Made by a program: the position numbers and the translations under genes. DNA of 64,000 nucleotides from Pseudoxanthomonas kalamensis DSM 18571 (GTDB lineage: Bacteria; Pseudomonadota; Gammaproteobacteria; Xanthomonadales; Xanthomonadaceae), in NCBI RefSeq assembly GCF_010211745.1, contig NZ_PDWQ01000004.1:344618-408617 (forward strand). Direction: 5' to 3'. A model generated the notes under the pieces. It was not told where the DNA came from and ran no database searches. It saw only the letters and a list, made by a program, of their open reading frames with translations. Positions 53,980 through 62,430 of the stretch are shown here, piece by piece (the first letter of the stretch is position 1; each line of letters begins with the position of its first letter).

Positions 53980-54152
53980 GATGTTCCCCCGGCCTTGTGG
54001 AAGTGCATCAGCATACCTCCCGCCCATGCGCGCAGCATCCCGGCAAGATGAACGCGGAGGTCTCCGCCAGCCGTTCATCGCATGTTGCGCCGCCATACTC
54101 CCCGACGCCGGATTCGCAGTATGCTGCGCATGCGGCAGGGAGGAACCCCGGC

Positions 54153-55238
54153 ATGTTCGGTCTGGCATTGCTCGCGGCGTTGACAGTCGCCAACATGGCT
54201 CCCGTGGAAGCACCACGGGCGATGGCAGAGTCCGTCCCGCCGACACCGGACCAGATACTGGCCATTCCCGACGCCCTGCGCGAGCAACTGCAGCAACGGG
54301 TCATCGACCCCACCCAATCCAGGGAACAGCGCCTGGAAAGGCTGGCCGACTTCCTGTTCCACGAGGACGGTCTCGGCATGACCTACGAATACGACGCCAG
54401 CTACACGGTGGCCGAAGCCTTCCAGACCCGTCGCGCGAATTGCCTGACCTTCACCCTGCTGACGGTCGCATTGGCGCGCGAGGCCGGCCTGGAGGCCTAC
54501 GGCCAGCAGATCGAGGAAACCCTGTCCTGGCGCCAGGAAGCCAATACCGTCTATCGCACCAACCACGTCAATGCCGGCGTGCGCATCTACCAGCGCAAGC
54601 TCAGCGTCGATGTGGCGCAGGATTCGGTGATCGCACGCAACCCGCCCGAACGCATCGCCGACAACCGCCTGCTGGCGCACTACTACAACAATCGCGCTGC
54701 CGAGCTGCTCGCCGAAGGCCGGATGGACGCCGCCTGGGCGTACTCCGTGCGTTCGCTGGAGCTGGACCCCGACTACGCCACCAGCTGGAGCAATGCCGGG
54801 GTCGTGCAACTGCGCATGGGGCATGGCGACGAGGCCGAGCGTTATTACCTACACGCGCTGTCGTTGCAACCTTCGCACGAGGGAACGCTGTTCAATCTGG
54901 CGGCCTATTACCAGCGCAGCGAACAGACACGCAAGGCTGCCTCGATCAACCGGCGCTTGAATGCGGTGCAGGCGCGCGATCCCTTCTTCCAGTACGTCCG
55001 TGCTTCCGAATACGAGCGCCAAGGCAACTATGCCGACGCCGTGAAGTACTACAAGCGCGCAATCGACCTGTACGCCGGCGAACACCGCTTCCACTTCGGG
55101 CTCGCTCGTGCCTACCTGCTGATGGGCGATACTCGTCGCGCCAGCCATGCCCTGGTTCGCGCCAGCGAACTCAGCCAGGGCGAGGCTCGACAGCATTACC
55201 AGGCCAAGCTGGATACGCTGCGCAAGCGCCTCAACTGA
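54153..55238 (+). CDS. Exported transglutaminase-like and TPR protein
   Basis: The 361-residue protein has an N-terminal export signal (MFGLALLAALTVANMAP). A transglutaminase/papain-like segment follows, with Cys in RRANCLTFTLLTVALAREAG and His in TNHVNAG. At least four TPR units come after it (NRAAELLAEGRMDAAWAY, NAGVVQLRMGHGDEAERYY, ASEYERQGNYADAVKYYKRA, AYLLMGDTRRASHAL). Such proteins are often periplasmic scaffolds or peptidases. ATG at 54153 was chosen because GGGAGGA lies upstream; the longer frame has no similarity. It diverges from the zinc-finger gene. Confidence 0.82.
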   Translation: MFGLALLAALTVANMAPVEAPRAMAESVPPTPDQILAIPDALREQLQQRVIDPTQSREQRLERLADFLFHEDGLGMTYEYDASYTVAEAFQTRRANCLTFTLLTVALAREAGLEAYGQQIEETLSWRQEANTVYRTNHVNAGVRIYQRKLSVDVAQDSVIARNPPERIADNRLLAHYYNNRAAELLAEGRMDAAWAYSVRSLELDPDYATSWSNAGVVQLRMGHGDEAERYYLHALSLQPSHEGTLFNLAAYYQRSEQTRKAASINRRLNAVQARDPFFQYVRASEYERQGNYADAVKYYKRAIDLYAGEHRFHFGLARAYLLMGDTRRASHALVRASELSQGEARQHYQAKLDTLRKRLN

Positions 55239-55303: not shown

Positions 55304-56257
55304 TCATAACTCCGGCGTGGAATCGGCAATGATCTCCATCGCCTCCTTGGCACGCTGCTCCTGTCGGCGGATTTCTTCCGGCGTCCATTGCTTCGATGTC
55401 GACGGAGCGGCAGATGGCTCGGCCGGCCGGCTCCCTGCCGACATGGGCACTGCCCTTGCCTGTGTTGAGGAAGATCGCGCCTGAACCGGCATCTCATGGA
55501 CAACCGGAACCTCCGTCTTCCCCGCCCGGGCCGTGATCGAAGTCAACCCATGTGTCAACACGGAAACTGCAACCCAGACTACCAACAGGAACAAGCCAAA
55601 CGACACGACCAACCCCAGCAACTTTCCCCCGGCCAGATACAGCAACGCTTGCGCACCATGACCACGACCACGACCACGGCTTCGCCCCCCATATCGGATC
55701 CGGTCTTCCAGTGCTCCGAGCATGCGCTCGCTTATTCCAGCGGCCAGCTTTCCTGCCTGCTGCACCCTGTCCTGTCCAAACTCGCCATTGCGAGTCTCTC
55801 GCCCCGGTGCAAACCGCATGATTTCGTCAGTGGGCAACGGCCCCAACATCTCCCGCAAGTCATTGCCGTCAACCAATTGGACGTGGCCCAGCTTGGTCGC
55901 CGACTCAATGGCCTTGCGGGTAAATTCACCGGTCGTGACCAGGATGGCTCCCGTGGCTCCTTCGTTGACCATCAGCCCGATGAGTTGATGTACCTCATTG
56001 TGTGGTACCTGATAAGCATTCCAGCCCTTGCACTGGACCAGTATGTATTGGTCGTCCTGTCGCAGCTTGAGATCGATTCCACCATCGAATCGTTGGCCGC
56101 TGGCACCCGTACCCACGTGTTCGACCCGATATCCCTGCTGGCGGTAATGCTCGGCCAGCAGAACCTCCAGGCGGTCCCAGCGCAATCTGGACACGCCATC
56201 GTCCCGGCGAATTTTGACCTGCTTGAGCCCCTGTCGCTTCATGTTTCCATCTGCCAT
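55304..56257 (-). CDS. Mrr-type PD-(D/E)xK endonuclease with membrane helix
   Basis: The 317-residue protein has an Mrr-catalytic-type domain at the N-terminus: LEVLLAEHYRQQGYRVE, then the nuclease core FDGGIDLKL...YILVQCKGW with the Asp and Gln-x-Lys ligands, and GATGAILVTTGEFT. Two Arg/Gly-rich repeats follow, then a membrane segment (LLGLVVSFGLFLLVVWVAV) and a low-complexity tail. Membrane-anchored Mrr-like nucleases are widespread and are thought to handle modified or foreign DNA. No methylase or other restriction partner is nearby. Confidence 0.82.
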   Translation of the reverse strand: MADGNMKRQGLKQVKIRRDDGVSRLRWDRLEVLLAEHYRQQGYRVEHVGTGASGQRFDGGIDLKLRQDDQYILVQCKGWNAYQVPHNEVHQLIGLMVNEGATGAILVTTGEFTRKAIESATKLGHVQLVDGNDLREMLGPLPTDEIMRFAPGRETRNGEFGQDRVQQAGKLAAGISERMLGALEDRIRYGGRSRGRGRGHGAQALLYLAGGKLLGLVVSFGLFLLVVWVAVSVLTHGLTSITARAGKTEVPVVHEMPVQARSSSTQARAVPMSAGSRPAEPSAAPSTSKQWTPEEIRRQEQRAKEAMEIIADSTPEL

Positions 56258-58409: not shown

Positions 58410-60956
58410 CTAGGCCGGAATGGAACCGGCGACGGCTTCGGCATCATCGCCATCGTCAACGGTTTCGCGCCCGCGAGGCAACGGTGGAATGACCAGGGTG
58501 GTGCATTCCTCGTAGCGCGCCGATGGCAGATCGCGCAACGGCAGGCGATCGGCGCGGAAGCTTTCGATCGGCAGACGTGCCGCTTCGTACAGGATCACTT
58601 CGTGCCCGGGCGGATACCAGCGCAGCAACCGATCGACCAAGGCCTGCAAGGCTTCGCTGTCGGCGTGGAACCGACTGCACGACAGATCGCCCGACAGGGT
58701 CACCTGCCACAACAGGACCAGTCCGCCGGTATCGGGGCAACGGTCGTCGACCATGAACTGGGTCGCCTCCATCGACTGCACGCCACGCTGGCCGGGATCG
58801 ATGCCGAGATCGGCATACAGACAGGCCTCGGCGGAAACGCCCGGCTCCATCCGCGCCGGGATGCCTTCGGCGCGCGCCTTGCGCACCACCGCATGCGGCA
58901 CGTCGGCGAACACGCCCGGATGTCCGTAGAACGCCGCGCACACCCGCTTGCCGGCGCGCACTTCGGCCATGATCGCCGCCTCCATCTCGCGATAGGTCTG
59001 CCTGCGGTCCTTGCCGGGGGCGTAATGGGCGCCGAGGTTGATCGCATCGGGGCGGAAATCGCGGATCATCGCCAACGCGAACGGATCGACCAGGCAGAAC
59101 ACCACCTCGGCCTCGCGGATTTCCGACAGGCAGCGCTCGCTGGCATGGCGACCGAAATCGATGCCGCACCCCACCACCACCAGGCCCGCCCCCGACTCCA
59201 CGGCTTCGGACTCGCCAGCGCGGACCGTGCGGTCGCGGCCTTCCTGCTTGGCCCGGTACAACGCCTGGTCGGCCTGGTGGATCAGCTGTTCCAGCGTGGC
59301 GGCATTGCCGTTCGCCTGGCAGACCCCGTAGCTGATGCTGAAGTGCACGGTCTGCCCGAACACGCTGATCGGTTCGATGCGCTCGCGCAGGCGTTGCAGC
59401 AGGGCCTCGGCCTGCGCGGCATCGGCTTCCAGCAGGATGGTGAATTCGTCGCCGCCGCTGCGACCGGCAATGCCCCGGTCGCCGACGATTTCGCCGATCC
59501 AGGCACCGAGCGAACGCAAGGCCTCGTCGCCGGCGGCATGGCCATGATGGTCGTTGACGCCCTTGAAACGGTCGATGTCGGCCACGATCGCGGTGAACGG
59601 CTGCCCGGTCTTGCGGGTGCGGGCGAAGGCCTCCTCGCCCAGCTTGCGCGCCTGCTGGTAGTTGTACAGGCCGGTCAGGCTGTCGTGCTCGGACTGCCAA
59701 CGGTAGCGGCGGCGATCGCGGAACGAACGCCGCAGGATGCTGATCAGCAGGGCGGCGAGTAGCAGCAAGCTGCCGATGCCGGCGACCAGCAGCCACTGCC
59801 GGCGCTTGGTCGTGGCGATCTGCAGTTCGGACAGCTCCTTTTCCGCTTCCAGCCGGGCGATCTGCTGTTCCTTCAGCTCGGTGTCGAACTCGACCTGCAG
59901 ATACGCCAGCCGCCGCTCGCGCGCCTCCGCCTCGGCCACCTCGGCCGCAGCCATCGCACGCTTGGTCCAGGACAACGCTCCCGTCAGATCGTCACGTCGC
60001 TCGGCCAACTTGGCGAGCAGGCTCTGGATCTCGGCGAGCGCAGTATGCGACTCCCTGGACGAATAATGATCCAACGCGCCGGTCAAGTACGCCTGCGCCT
60101 GGTCGAAATCCCGACCCAGCTCGATCATGCTTTCGGCCATGACCAACTTGTCGCTCCAGGCGCCGTCCTGATAGCCAATCGCTTCAAAATCAGCCAGCGC
60201 CTGCCGCGCCCAGTGCAGTGCCTCGGCTTGGCGGCCCTGCCGCAGCGCCATCTTGCCGATGCCGTATTTGCCGTTGGCGACAAAAATGCGATCGTCGACC
60301 TTTGCACACAACTCGACCTGGCGTCGCCGCCAGCGTTCCGATTCACGAAAGTTGCCGGAATATTCTTCAGCCAGCGCCACATCCCCCGCAGCCAGACACA
60401 GCGCCCGGGGCTCACCCTCGGCTTCGGCCGCCTCCAGCCCGCGACGCGCCAGCTCCCGCGCCTTGACGTACTCGCCGACCAGAACGTGCAGATAGCTAGC
60501 CACCCCCATCAGCCCTGCCGACGCCTCCGGAGCCGCGGACACGGAAGACAGACCCTCATTCAGCCAGGCAAAGGCCTGTGGCCATCTCTCGCTGTTGGCG
60601 GCGATGCTGATGGCGGTGGTATAGGCGCGCAAGCGCAGGTCCGCCGGCAGGTCCTGCTGCTGCAACAAATCGCCGAAGCCGTCCAGGGCCGCCGCATTTT
60701 CGCCGGCGATGCCGAGGTTGCGCAGGCGGACGTATTCGATGCGCCGGTGCTGTTCGGGCGAAAGCTGCGCTTGTCCCTCATTCAGCGCCGCAATCTTCTC
60801 GTTGGATTCGCGCCAGTGCGCGGCGATCCCCAGCCGCTCGATTTCCCTGACCTGCGGTTCCAGCGCTTCGTTGGCGAACGCCGGCTTGCCGGCGAACGTC
60901 AGCAGGAAAAGGGAAACCGCGGTGAATGCCTGCCTGCGCATGCGCTGACCGTCCAT
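58410..60956 (-). CDS. TPR sensor-GGDEF cyclase fused to a borosin-type alpha-N-methyltransferase
   Basis: The 848-residue protein has a signal peptide (1-28), TPR-like helical repeats (about 35-335), a coiled coil (345-385), one membrane helix (387-408), and a GGDEF domain (about 412-578) with intact GGDEF at 501-505. From about 590 to 830 there is a tetrapyrrole-methylase-fold domain: SAM-site VVGCGIDFG, HYAPGKDRRQTYREM (Y645, R651/R652, Y655), FYGHPGVF (676-683), PGVSAE (705-710) and MEATQF. These motifs match borosin backbone N-methyltransferases rather than cobalamin enzymes. The inhibitory I-site RxxD before GGDEF is absent. Cyclase and methylase should both lie in the cytoplasm, with the TPR part outside. 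It follows a SonA-like precursor gene by 13 bp. Confidence 0.88.
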   Translation of the reverse strand: MDGQRMRRQAFTAVSLFLLTFAGKPAFANEALEPQVREIERLGIAAHWRESNEKIAALNEGQAQLSPEQHRRIEYVRLRNLGIAGENAAALDGFGDLLQQQDLPADLRLRAYTTAISIAANSERWPQAFAWLNEGLSSVSAAPEASAGLMGVASYLHVLVGEYVKARELARRGLEAAEAEGEPRALCLAAGDVALAEEYSGNFRESERWRRRQVELCAKVDDRIFVANGKYGIGKMALRQGRQAEALHWARQALADFEAIGYQDGAWSDKLVMAESMIELGRDFDQAQAYLTGALDHYSSRESHTALAEIQSLLAKLAERRDDLTGALSWTKRAMAAAEVAEAEARERRLAYLQVEFDTELKEQQIARLEAEKELSELQIATTKRRQWLLVAGIGSLLLLAALLISILRRSFRDRRRYRWQSEHDSLTGLYNYQQARKLGEEAFARTRKTGQPFTAIVADIDRFKGVNDHHGHAAGDEALRSLGAWIGEIVGDRGIAGRSGGDEFTILLEADAAQAEALLQRLRERIEPISVFGQTVHFSISYGVCQANGNAATLEQLIHQADQALYRAKQEGRDRTVRAGESEAVESGAGLVVVGCGIDFGRHASERCLSEIREAEVVFCLVDPFALAMIRDFRPDAINLGAHYAPGKDRRQTYREMEAAIMAEVRAGKRVCAAFYGHPGVFADVPHAVVRKARAEGIPARMEPGVSAEACLYADLGIDPGQRGVQSMEATQFMVDDRCPDTGGLVLLWQVTLSGDLSCSRFHADSEALQALVDRLLRWYPPGHEVILYEAARLPIESFRADRLPLRDLPSARYEECTTLVIPPLPRGRETVDDGDDAEAVAGSIPA

Positions 60957-60969
60957 GCCGCGACGCAGG

Positions 60970-61185
60970 TCAGTCGTAGGCCTTGATGATGTGGTTGATG
61001 GCGAACATCCCGTCCTCCAGGCCGGTCAACCGCTTGATTGTCTCGTAATCCTTTTCGAGCATGGCCTTGCGCTCCTCATCCGACAATCCGGCATGCCGCA
61101 TCACGCCATCCGGATCCTTCTCGTACTCTGCGGCCAGCGCCGCGTCGCGGCCGAGCCGCTTCATCAGATCAAGCAGTTTCGACAT
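60970..61185 (-). CDS. Split-borosin-type precursor peptide (SonA-like)
   Basis: The 71-residue peptide has an N-terminal helical domain and a short C-terminal tail. The pattern LGRDAALAAEY, then DPDGVMRHAGLSDEE, then KRLTG follows, nearly position by position, what I remember of the Shewanella SonA precursor (L-G-x-D-A-x-L, then N-P-E-x-V-M-R-x-x-G-L-T-D-E). The likely core is residues 59-71, GMFAINHIIKAYD, with beta-branched I66/I67 and I63 as probable N-methylation sites. ATG at 61185 follows AGGGG at good spacing; an upstream frame to 61314 has no similarity. It lies directly before the methyltransferase fusion, implying co-translation. Confidence 0.85.
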   Translation of the reverse strand: MSKLLDLMKRLGRDAALAAEYEKDPDGVMRHAGLSDEERKAMLEKDYETIKRLTGLEDGMFAINHIIKAYD

Positions 61186-61389
61186 GTGGTTCGCCCCTAA
61201 TCGACACGCATCCACCGCCATCGCCAGCGGACTAGGCAACGCGGTCCATGCGCCACGATCAGCCGAGGGTGCGGGAGCCTCCCACCGCGCCTTCGAGACC
61301 TGCGACATTAGCACAGGAAAACGGCCACGCCGCCGCCCGCGATGCCGGAAAACCGGACCGGTTTCGCAAACGGCGTCATTCGGGACCGA

Positions 61390-62430
61390 TCAGCCGCGGA
61401 ACACCGGCTCCAGCATGCGGAACGTGCCGGCGTCGGCGTCCATCTCCACCATGCCGCCCACCGGCACGATGAACTGCTCGCGGATGTGGCCGATCAGCGC
61501 GCCGCGGTAGGCTGGAATGCCGAGCGGCTTGACGTGGTCGTCGAGAATCTGCGCCAGGTTCAGCGAACCGTAGCCGTCGCCGGGCGTGCAGTCGGAGCAT
61601 TCGCCGAAGATCAGCCCGGCGATCCGGTCCAGCGCGCCCATCAGCTTGAGCGTGCTGAACATGCGGTCGATCCGGTACGGCGCTTCCGACACGTCTTCCA
61701 GGAACAGGATCTTGCCGTCGAAGTCCGGCAGGTACGGCGAACCGGCCAGCGCGGTCAGCACGGTCAGGTTGCCGCCGAACAGTTCGCCGCGCGCCTTGCC
61801 GCCGGTGACGGTCACGGTCCGGTTGCGGCGCGGCACCAGCTCGTCCTTGTCCTCGACCGGGTTGCGGTACTGCATCAGCTTGCGTTCGAAGAACAGTTCG
61901 CGGAACTGCTCGGCATTGAAGCGATTCCAGCTGCCGGTGCCCATCGGCCCGTGGAAAGTGACCAGACCGGTCTGCGCCTGCAGCGCGCAATGCAGGGCGG
62001 TGATGTCGGAATAGCCCAGCAGCACCTTCGGATTGCGGCGAATCATGCCGTAATCGAGCATCGGCAGCAGCCGGGCCGCGCCGGAACCGCCGCGCAGGCA
62101 GATCACGGCCTTGACTTCGTCGTCGGCGAAGGCGGCGTTGAGATCGGCGGCGCGCTCGGCGTCGGAACCGGCCAGGTGGCCGTAACGCGCGCCCAGATGC
62201 GCACCGGGCCGAACCTTGAACCCCAGCGCCTCGACCGTCTCGCGCGCCAGTTGCAGGCTGAACGGGTCGTCGACCGCCGCCGACGGACTGACCAGGGCCA
62301 CGGTATCGCCGCGCTTGATCGGCGGCGGCAGCAAACGGCCGTGTTCAGCCGCCAGTGCCGTGCCGCCACGCACCAAGGGCAGCATCAATGCCGTCAACGC
62401 CGCGCTGCCGATGAATCCTCGCCTGTCCAT
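61390..62430 (-). CDS. S66-family LD-carboxypeptidase
   Basis: The 346-residue protein has a Tat-like signal (MDRRGFIGSAALTALMLPL) and the S66 fold with catalytic Ser in LLGYSDITAL, Glu in FLEDVSEAPYRIDRM and His in IGHIREQF. Family members trim the terminal D-Ala of tetrapeptide muropeptides or act on immunity-type peptides such as microcin C. A twin-arginine-type signal on an S66 enzyme is unusual, since LdcA is normally cytoplasmic. It lies upstream of the borosin-like operon with a gap of about 200 bp. Confidence 0.9.
   Translation of the reverse strand: MDRRGFIGSAALTALMLPLVRGGTALAAEHGRLLPPPIKRGDTVALVSPSAAVDDPFSLQLARETVEALGFKVRPGAHLGARYGHLAGSDAERAADLNAAFADDEVKAVICLRGGSGAARLLPMLDYGMIRRNPKVLLGYSDITALHCALQAQTGLVTFHGPMGTGSWNRFNAEQFRELFFERKLMQYRNPVEDKDELVPRRNRTVTVTGGKARGELFGGNLTVLTALAGSPYLPDFDGKILFLEDVSEAPYRIDRMFSTLKLMGALDRIAGLIFGECSDCTPGDGYGSLNLAQILDDHVKPLGIPAYRGALIGHIREQFIVPVGGMVEMDADAGTFRMLEPVFRG

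What the first reader, a model, noticed from the sequence alone, without database searches (positions are those of the whole stretch)
58410..61185. A split-borosin locus whose N-methyltransferase is fused to a membrane GGDEF sensor
A 71-residue SonA-like precursor is followed 13 bp later by one uninterrupted frame that fuses TPR sensor, membrane helix, GGDEF cyclase and a borosin-type methyltransferase. Known split borosins use a stand-alone methyltransferase of about 260 residues. I know of no described case where backbone alpha-N-methylation is joined to c-di-GMP signalling. The motifs (YGHPGVF, PGVSAE, Y-R-Y cluster) are visible. The biological link between signal, c-di-GMP and peptide methylation is inference.
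Basis: partly seen in the sequence, partly recalled or inferred. Interest (0 to 1): 0.96.

Follow-up and report, generated by a model that had tools for sequence, protein, structure and literature searches.

The report
Sensor cyclase fused to peptide methylase
A bacterium carries a small peptide gene directly in front of one gene whose protein joins a predicted membrane sensor, a domain that likely makes the signal molecule c-di-GMP, and an enzyme part predicted to methylate that peptide's backbone; the same parts lie side by side in many related bacteria, so a role in signalling is likely and can be tested.

Summary
A 71-residue SonA-like precursor (61185..60970, -) is followed on the same strand by one open frame (60956..58410, 848 aa; 843 aa from the likelier second ATG) with predicted signal peptide, TPR region, membrane helix, GGDEF domain and borosin N-methyltransferase (MT) domain. 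The MT domain matches SonM at E 1.8e-68 and keeps SonM's Y58/R67/Y71.

"No described case" is too strong: a 2024 figure legend lists GGDEF among borosin architectures (figure not held). I file the locus as a new member of a known kind.

New here is the context. Of 80 stand-alone MT loci with enough DNA, 75 have a same-strand GGDEF gene just downstream and 72 the order MT - precursor - GGDEF gene. A locus 78% identical to SonM has it too. The nearest stand-alone relative adds a TPR histidine kinase, and one unfused locus has a degenerate GGDEF, which suggests that TPR sensor plus peptide is the constant part. Methylation, c-di-GMP synthesis and peptide signalling remain untested.

The parts
60970..61185 (-). 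Precursor peptide gene, 71 aa, SonA-like
   Evidence: (SonA sequences E 5.6e-9 to 3e-8)
61021..61185 (-). Borosin-binding-domain (BBD) part, residues 1-55
   Evidence: Alignment to SonA 1-56; five helices 3-54 in the model; 1.0 A over 53 columns to SonA chain 9ch7_H
60973..61005 (-). Predicted core tail, residues 61-71 (FAINHIIKAYD)
   Evidence: Model disordered at 64-71; family consensus F-A-T-N-H-x-[IV]-x-A-Y-[DE] in 114 precursors. That this is the methylated stretch is inferred from SonA
61194..61198 (-). AGGGG, ribosome-binding-like site of the precursor
   Evidence: Sequence
58410..60956 (-). Fusion gene, 848 aa from the first ATG; second ATG at 60941 (843 aa) is likelier
60873..60941 (-). 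Predicted signal peptide, residues 6-28 (RR, hydrophobic run, AFA)
   Evidence: Read from the sequence by eye; no signal-peptide program was available
59922..60869 (-). TPR sensor region, residues 30-345, predicted periplasmic
   Evidence: TPR_12; helical array in the model; side of the membrane inferred
59733..59792 (-). Membrane helix, residues 389-408, inside a long helix 324-423
59220..59687 (-). GGDEF domain, residues 424-579
   Evidence: PF00990 E 1e-35
59442..59456 (-). GGDEF motif, residues 501-505, no RxxD inhibitory site before it
   Evidence: GGDEF (117) or GGEEF (3) in 120 of 120 fusions read; RxxD absent in 118 of 120
58476..59189 (-). Borosin N-methyltransferase domain, residues 590-827
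   Evidence: SonM E 1.8e-68, OphMA 1.7e-38
58992..59024 (-). Catalytic Y645, R651, Y655 (SonM Y58, R67, Y71)
   Evidence: Alignment columns

Best explanation
The locus encodes a SonA-like precursor peptide and, directly behind it, one protein that joins a TPR region, a membrane helix, a GGDEF domain with an intact motif and a SonM-like backbone N-methyltransferase domain, which is predicted to methylate the precursor's tail and likely belongs to a peptide-signalling unit. Proposed working: (1) the precursor's N-terminal helical bundle docks on the cytoplasmic MT domain (inferred from SonM-SonA); (2) the MT domain, active as a dimer, adds methyl groups to backbone amides in residues 61-71 (predicted); (3) the tail, or a product cut from it, is the signal that the periplasmic TPR region reads (inferred, weakest step); (4) the TPR state passes through the membrane helix and the long helix to the dimeric GGDEF domain and sets c-di-GMP (predicted). 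The fusion is likely a late form of a conserved set of separate genes: MT, precursor and TPR sensor-cyclase.
For: Parts. Active-site letters: SonM Y58, R67, Y71, Y93 and F99 kept in 27 of 27 fused rows, 81 of 81 stand-alone rows and 6 of 6 others; GGDEF or GGEEF motif in 120 of 120 fusions read, the wider metal/substrate motif in 119 of 120. Link: precursor next to the fusion in 25 of 25 fused loci that hold the DNA, 22 if contigs held twice are counted once. In stand-alone MT loci a GGDEF domain lies 1.0-2.5 kb downstream on the same strand in 73 of 80, against 0-6 loci in each of the other nine same-strand bins and 0-8 in the opposite-strand bins (72-84 loci each); order MT-precursor-cyclase in 72 of 80. 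The window's genome has only 12 GGDEF matches, genus-mates 9-38. Unfused precursor-cyclase-MT order: L009 and L150. TPR sensor constant, output less so: L142, the sister of the fused clade in the larger tree, has a TPR-histidine-kinase-receiver protein between precursor and MT, in addition to a TPR-GGDEF protein; L150 has a degenerate GGDEF (GAAEF). Weak hint: in 71 stand-alone loci core distances follow those of the cyclase (partial r 0.12 for TPR, 0.145 for GGDEF) and not of the MT (-0.08), while BBD distances follow the MT (0.27).
Against: No methylation, c-di-GMP or peptide binding was measured. Beyond precursor and fusion no gene family recurs in more than 7 of 23 fused loci (an S66 peptidase, 2 genera); I did not annotate all neighbours, so an exporter is neither found nor excluded, yet step 3 needs export, since the MT domain is predicted to be cytoplasmic and the TPR region periplasmic. 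The core-cyclase correlation is weak and does not single out the TPR part over GGDEF, and the BBD too correlates with the TPR part (0.18). L150's GGDEF looks inactive, so c-di-GMP synthesis is not required everywhere. Of 20 MT loci outside the family, 9 have no same-strand adjacent GGDEF gene, and 5 of 80 inside it have none within 3.5 kb.
Confidence: 0.45

Rival explanations
1. Signal-gated synthesis: the TPR-membrane stalk switches the attached MT domain, and the GGDEF domain reports the same stimulus; the peptide is an end product (for example an inhibitor or metallophore), not the signal.
For: MT and GGDEF domains both work as dimers by established knowledge, and here share one stalk; the fusion is found in 7 genera of the family.
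Against: In the commoner unfused form the MT is a separate protein; in the two scanned with Pfam (L009, L153) it carries no further domain that would read the stalk or c-di-GMP, so gating in cis does not explain the wider unit.
Confidence: 0.25
2. Co-location only: the enzymes of a split borosin pathway and a sensor cyclase are kept together for joint expression, with no direct regulation between peptide and cyclase.
For: Operon-like order on one strand in 72 of 80 stand-alone loci.
Against: Fusion into one chain, the conserved tail, and TPR proteins with two different outputs in L142.
Confidence: 0.2
3. The small protein is not a methylation substrate but a BBD-type regulatory subunit of the fused enzyme; the tail is a docking element.
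For: The tail is about as conserved as the BBD (mean column entropy 1.00 against 0.86 bits), unlike many diversifying peptide products; BBD-like folds cap dioxygenases (PMC8429565, passages read).
Against: All five catalytic residues checked are kept; SonA, also 71 residues, has its methylated residues at 63 and 65 (PMC11285071, passage read).
Confidence: 0.08
4. The methylase-like domain is a cobalamin-type or RsmI-type enzyme and the small ORF is a LigA-like dioxygenase subunit.
For: Pfam calls the two TP_methylase and, below its cut-off, LigA.
Against: SonM 1.8e-68 against 2.2e-5 for the best cobalamin-type chain; own RsmI no match; no LigB hit among the ten neighbouring proteins scanned.
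Confidence: 0.01

Closest known systems
SonM-SonA, type IV split borosin of Shewanella oneidensis (PMC8429565; passages and one section read)
   Same: MT domain 49% identical, catalytic residues kept; precursor of the same length with the same five-helix BBD; adjacent genes.
   Different: Here the MT is the C-terminal part of a TPR-membrane-GGDEF protein, the precursor comes first, and the tail is unlike SonA's (alignment ends at residues 55-60). A locus whose MT is 78% identical to SonM has a separate TPR-GGDEF gene next to it; the S. oneidensis locus itself was not examined.
GGDEF-bearing borosin architecture in the published type scheme (PMC11395268; introduction, Fig. 1 legend and passages read)
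   Same: A GGDEF domain is listed as part of a borosin architecture.
   Different: Figure not held; whether it is fused, which type, and whether a TPR sensor is drawn could not be seen. The paper does not hold the term c-di-GMP.
Fungal fused borosins (OphMA, dbOphMA, MroMA)
   Same: Same MT family (E 1.8e-40 to 2e-32).
   Different: There MT, clasp and core are one chain; here the core lies on a separate peptide.
TPR receptors of peptide pheromones (RRNPP group; recalled)
   Same: Helical-repeat sensor encoded beside a small peptide gene.
   Different: RRNPP receptors are cytoplasmic; their peptides are not known to be backbone-methylated (recalled). A likeness of working only.

Membership tests
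Split borosin | MT domain of the SonM/OphMA family with the Tyr-Arg-Tyr set | tested here: met
Split borosin | Precursor encoded separately from the MT and adjacent to it | tested here: met
Split borosin | Precursor leader is a five-helix BBD | tested here: met
   (TM-score 0.92 by target length to 9ch7_H; Foldseek E only 0.02, probability 1.00)
Split borosin | Backbone alpha-N-methylation of the core | not testable with these tools
   Needs co-expression and mass spectrometry
Split borosin, type IV in the narrow sense | MT is a discrete protein of about 260 aa | tested here: not met
   MT is residues 590-827 of an 843-848 aa chain
GGDEF-bearing borosin type of the published scheme | Domain order and type definition | not testable with these tools
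   Legend only; figure and 2022 paper not held
Active diguanylate cyclase | GG[DE]EF and surrounding active-site letters | tested here: met
   120 of 120 and 119 of 120 fusions read
Active diguanylate cyclase | c-di-GMP synthesis | not testable with these tools
   Enzyme assay needed
Cobalamin or RsmI methylases | Closest sequence relatives | tested here: not met
LigA subunit of LigAB dioxygenases | Pfam cut-off reached and LigB partner nearby | tested here: not met
   23.7 bits against 25.3; no LigB hit in the ten neighbouring proteins scanned
RRNPP peptide-TPR systems | Cytoplasmic TPR receptor that binds the mature peptide | tested here: inconclusive
   TPR present but predicted periplasmic; binding not testable

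The most novel reading that the evidence does not exclude
SonM-type bacterial borosins are a class of backbone-methylated peptide signals with dedicated membrane TPR receptors. The receptor's output is exchangeable (diguanylate cyclase, hybrid histidine kinase), and in one clade, the window's, peptide maker and receptor cyclase have fused into one protein.
Probability: 0.28. Interest if true: 0.87.

Novelty: new member of a known kind. Interest (0 to 1): 0.63.

Why it matters
To my knowledge (recalled) the biological job of most bacterial borosins is unknown. If their genes are tied to a membrane sensor with c-di-GMP or kinase output, as the neighbourhood counts suggest, there is at once a phenotype to test (c-di-GMP level, biofilm, motility) and a candidate receptor. 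The fused protein puts maker and sensor into one expressible construct. It would also give c-di-GMP research a new kind of input: a ribosomal peptide with a methylated backbone.

Tried and rejected
Cobalamin/RsmI assignment: rejected. LigA dioxygenase subunit: rejected. Peptidase or transporter partner of the fused form: the most frequent further family is an S66 peptidase upstream of the precursor, 7 of 23 fused loci clustered, 2 genera; the others reach at most 5 loci and were not annotated. Two prolyl-oligopeptidase-like ORFs beside L003-L005 were seen by eye and not followed. Full-length model as proof of the MT fold: not used, because its MT part superposes poorly on SonM (rmsd 14 A, target TM-score 0.45) although SonM is the top match. 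The coordinates were wrong (profile instead of sequence positions) and are not used; one search replaces it. The first clustering of neighbours was full of overlapping shadow frames; one search replaces it. The genome-contig scan with one sequence gave 10 loci, 8 of them relevant, L002-L009; L010 and L011 match other parts and were dropped. Of 21 MT places outside the family one (G1015) was not fetched. In the family search two second copies (G020, G160) were not fetched. The gene trees were built by FastTree on a short domain; several deep branches have low support, and the sister of the fused clade changed from L096-L098 to L142 when more rows were added.
Full report
CHECK. The frame list and DNA confirm the two genes on the minus strand: a 71-aa ORF at 61185..60970 and an 848-aa ORF at 60956..58410, 13 bp apart by the first ATG. 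The database protein for this window starts at the second ATG (843 aa). An in-frame start lies 25-33 bp behind the precursor's stop in 9 of the 12 loci L099-L110, while the group around L003-L005 has one at 8 bp. I therefore think 28 bp likelier than 13 bp; neither is shown.

PARTS. Pfam finds TPR_12, GGDEF and TP_methylase in the long protein, and LigA just under its cut-off in the short one. Against solved structures the MT part (residues 590-827) matches SonM at E 1.8e-68, fungal borosins at 1.8e-40 to 2e-32 and a precorrin methylase only at 2.2e-5. The short protein matches SonA over residues 1-56 or so at E 5.6e-9 to 3e-8, and its tail is not aligned to SonA's. A model of the short protein from 41 sequences shows helices at 3-13, 15-23, 25-32, 36-43 and 47-54 and a disordered tail at 64-71. 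Its best structural matches are SonA chains (1.0 A over 53 columns for 9ch7_H, E 0.02). The full-length model (40 sequences, mean pLDDT 81) has a helix array, one helix from 324 to 423 that contains the hydrophobic stretch, a GGDEF domain and the MT domain; the MT part superposes poorly on SonM. The genome holds two TP_methylase proteins, this one and an RsmI (named from its sequence, recalled), and the RsmI gives no match to the MT part at E <= 100.

FUSION FAMILY. A search with the MT part, restricted by length to proteins of the fusion's size class, gave 325 proteins, of which 120 are listed; I read those, some named from Luteimonas, Pseudoxanthomonas or Rubrivivax. Of these, 117 have GGDEF and 3 GGEEF; 119 have the pattern D-x-D-x-F-K-x-x-N-D-x-x-G-H-x-x-G-D-x-x-L; only 2 have an RxxD inhibitory site; 114 have YGHPGVF. 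The search with the precursor gave 114 proteins, the window's own among them. Their tail follows F-A-T-N-H-x-[IV]-x-A-Y-[DE]; Y70 is kept in 113 of 114, and the window departs by I at position 63, where 94 of 114 have T. The tail is about as conserved as the leader (1.00 against 0.86 bits). The search needs shared words, so distant precursors are missed.

GENOMES. Of 297 genomes of the window's family 118 match the whole fusion at E <= 1e-30, some only through TPR-GGDEF. I fetched 105 places from that list that cover the MT part. 19 are fusions, in 7 genera; 83 are stand-alone MTs (including L118), in 22 genera; two genomes (G097, G049) have both. Among the 19, L116 is cut by a contig end, L117 has its TPR part in another frame and L108's match holds a stop. 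The remaining three (L096-L098, genus g7) have an MT followed by a long C-terminal part and no GGDEF or precursor hit within the DNA fetched. With the named loci, 25 of 25 fused loci that hold the upstream DNA (window included) have a BBD-type precursor upstream. L003/L114, L004/L115 and L005/L112 have equal contig lengths and are counted twice, so 22 distinct ones; L007 and L116 are cut.

THE WIDER UNIT. For 86 stand-alone MTs (including L096-L098 and L118), 80 have at least 2.5 kb downstream. 73 of 80 have a GGDEF domain 1.0-2.5 kb downstream on the same strand; the other nine same-strand bins hold 0 to 6 loci each and the opposite-strand bins 0 to 8, of 72-84 loci. 75 of 80 have one within 3.5 kb on the same strand, and 72 of 80 show MT, precursor, GGDEF gene in this order; the eight others are L068, L083, L089, L091 and L095-L098. 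All 75 nearest GGDEF domains carry GGEEF, 65 an RxxD site, 72 a hydrophobic stretch before the domain. As a yardstick, the window's genome has 12 GGDEF matches and its genus-mates 9-38. The precursors of these loci are BBD-like with a hydrophobic stretch around M-x-C and an acidic end. Their profile was seeded with weak hits (E up to 0.1) of the fused-precursor profile and iterated; built from stand-alone sequences only, it finds the fused precursors back at E 3e-4 to 5e-11.

BEYOND THE FAMILY. MT relatives at E <= 1e-25 are rare: 9 of 369 genomes in a class sample and 15 of 398 in a phylum sample, window genome included. I fetched 20 of 21 places outside the family. 11 of 20 have a same-strand neighbouring GGDEF gene (L142, L143, L150-L155, L157-L159) and 9 do not; of these L156 has one on the other strand 1.8 kb off and one on the same strand 3.2 kb upstream. 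L153 has an MT 78% identical to SonM, a SonA-like precursor and a TPR-GGDEF protein of 592 aa. In the tree of 135 rows the fused MTs form one clade (27 of 27 rows, support 0.89), joined by L142 and then by L150. L142 has precursor, a 986-aa TPR-HisKA-HATPase-receiver protein, MT and TPR-GGDEF, in that order on one strand. L150 has precursor, TPR-GGDEF with a degenerate GAAEF, MT. L009, a Rhodoferax MAG, has precursor, TPR-like region-membrane-GGDEF (582 aa; only GGDEF is called by Pfam) and MT (284 aa) as three genes with 15 bp between the last two. The fused order is thus found unfused in L009 and L150; that a fusion arose from such an order is inference.

OTHER PARTNERS. A GNAT acetyltransferase lies within 1.5 kb upstream of the stand-alone MT, same strand, in 45 of 83 loci, 15 of 22 genera, in 41 of the 45 within 110 bp; a pepsin-like aspartic protease in 13 of 83, 5 genera. 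At fused loci the most frequent further family is an S66 peptidase, 7 of 23, 2 genera; two others reach 5 of 23 and were not annotated.

MECHANISM. Shown: the parts, their letters and their neighbourhood. From established knowledge of SonM-SonA: BBD docking and methylation of the tail are expected. Inferred: the TPR region lies in the periplasm; the GGDEF domain is active; the peptide is the TPR region's signal. For the last step speak the TPR sensor beside a second kind of output in L142, the degenerate GGDEF in L150, and a weak partial correlation in 71 loci: core with cyclase (TPR part 0.12, reached by 7 of 500 shuffles; GGDEF part 0.145, 0 of 500), core with MT -0.08 (474 of 500), BBD with MT 0.27 (0 of 500), BBD with TPR part 0.18 (7 of 500). 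Against it: no exporter identified, the two sides of the membrane, and no preference for TPR over GGDEF in that correlation.

LITERATURE. 'borosin' with 'GGDEF' finds one paper, PMC11395268; its only mention is in the legend of Fig. 1. 'borosin' with 'c-di-GMP', 'borosin' with 'Luteimonas', 'backbone N-methyltransferase' with 'diguanylate cyclase' and 'tetrapyrrole methylase' with 'GGDEF' find none; 'RiPP' with 'diguanylate cyclase' and 'precursor peptide' finds two actinomycete reviews, seen in the listing only. Three papers were opened: PMC8429565 (passages, section 6), PMC11395268 (passages, section 3) and PMC11285071 (two passages); the rest are listings. Only open-licence papers are held, so this says nothing about subscription papers.

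VERDICT. Its architecture is probably within a published borosin type; the conserved tie of SonM-type borosins to TPR sensors is the part I would follow.

Noticed in passing
L142:7713-10670 (-): A TPR-histidine-kinase-receiver hybrid stands between a BBD-type precursor and a SonM-like MT, in the closest stand-alone relative of the fused clade.
   Followed up: partly
stand-alone loci among L014-L094, e.g. L082:7766-8335 (-): GNAT acetyltransferase upstream of stand-alone borosin MTs in 45 of 83 loci; a possible second tailoring enzyme.
   Followed up: partly
L062:5055-6338 (+): Pepsin-like aspartic protease upstream of stand-alone MTs in 13 of 83 loci, a possible maturation protease.
   Followed up: partly
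L096-L098: Genus g7 genomes carry an MT domain with a long C-terminal extension, no GGDEF neighbour; another borosin architecture.
   Followed up: no
L065, L032, L076: Two or three BBD-type precursors at one MT.
   Followed up: no
L003-L005, e.g. L004:3372-5480 (-): Two prolyl-oligopeptidase-like ORFs, divergent to the fused borosin locus; assigned by eye from the ends printed.
   Followed up: no
window 61390-62430 (-): S66 LD-carboxypeptidase with a Tat-like N-terminus (by eye) just upstream of the precursor; found in 7 of 23 fused loci.
   Followed up: partly
window 55304-56257 (-): Mrr-type restriction endonuclease domain with a C-terminal hydrophobic stretch.
   Followed up: no
window 53997-55235 (+): Transglutaminase-like core joined to TPR repeats.
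   Followed up: no
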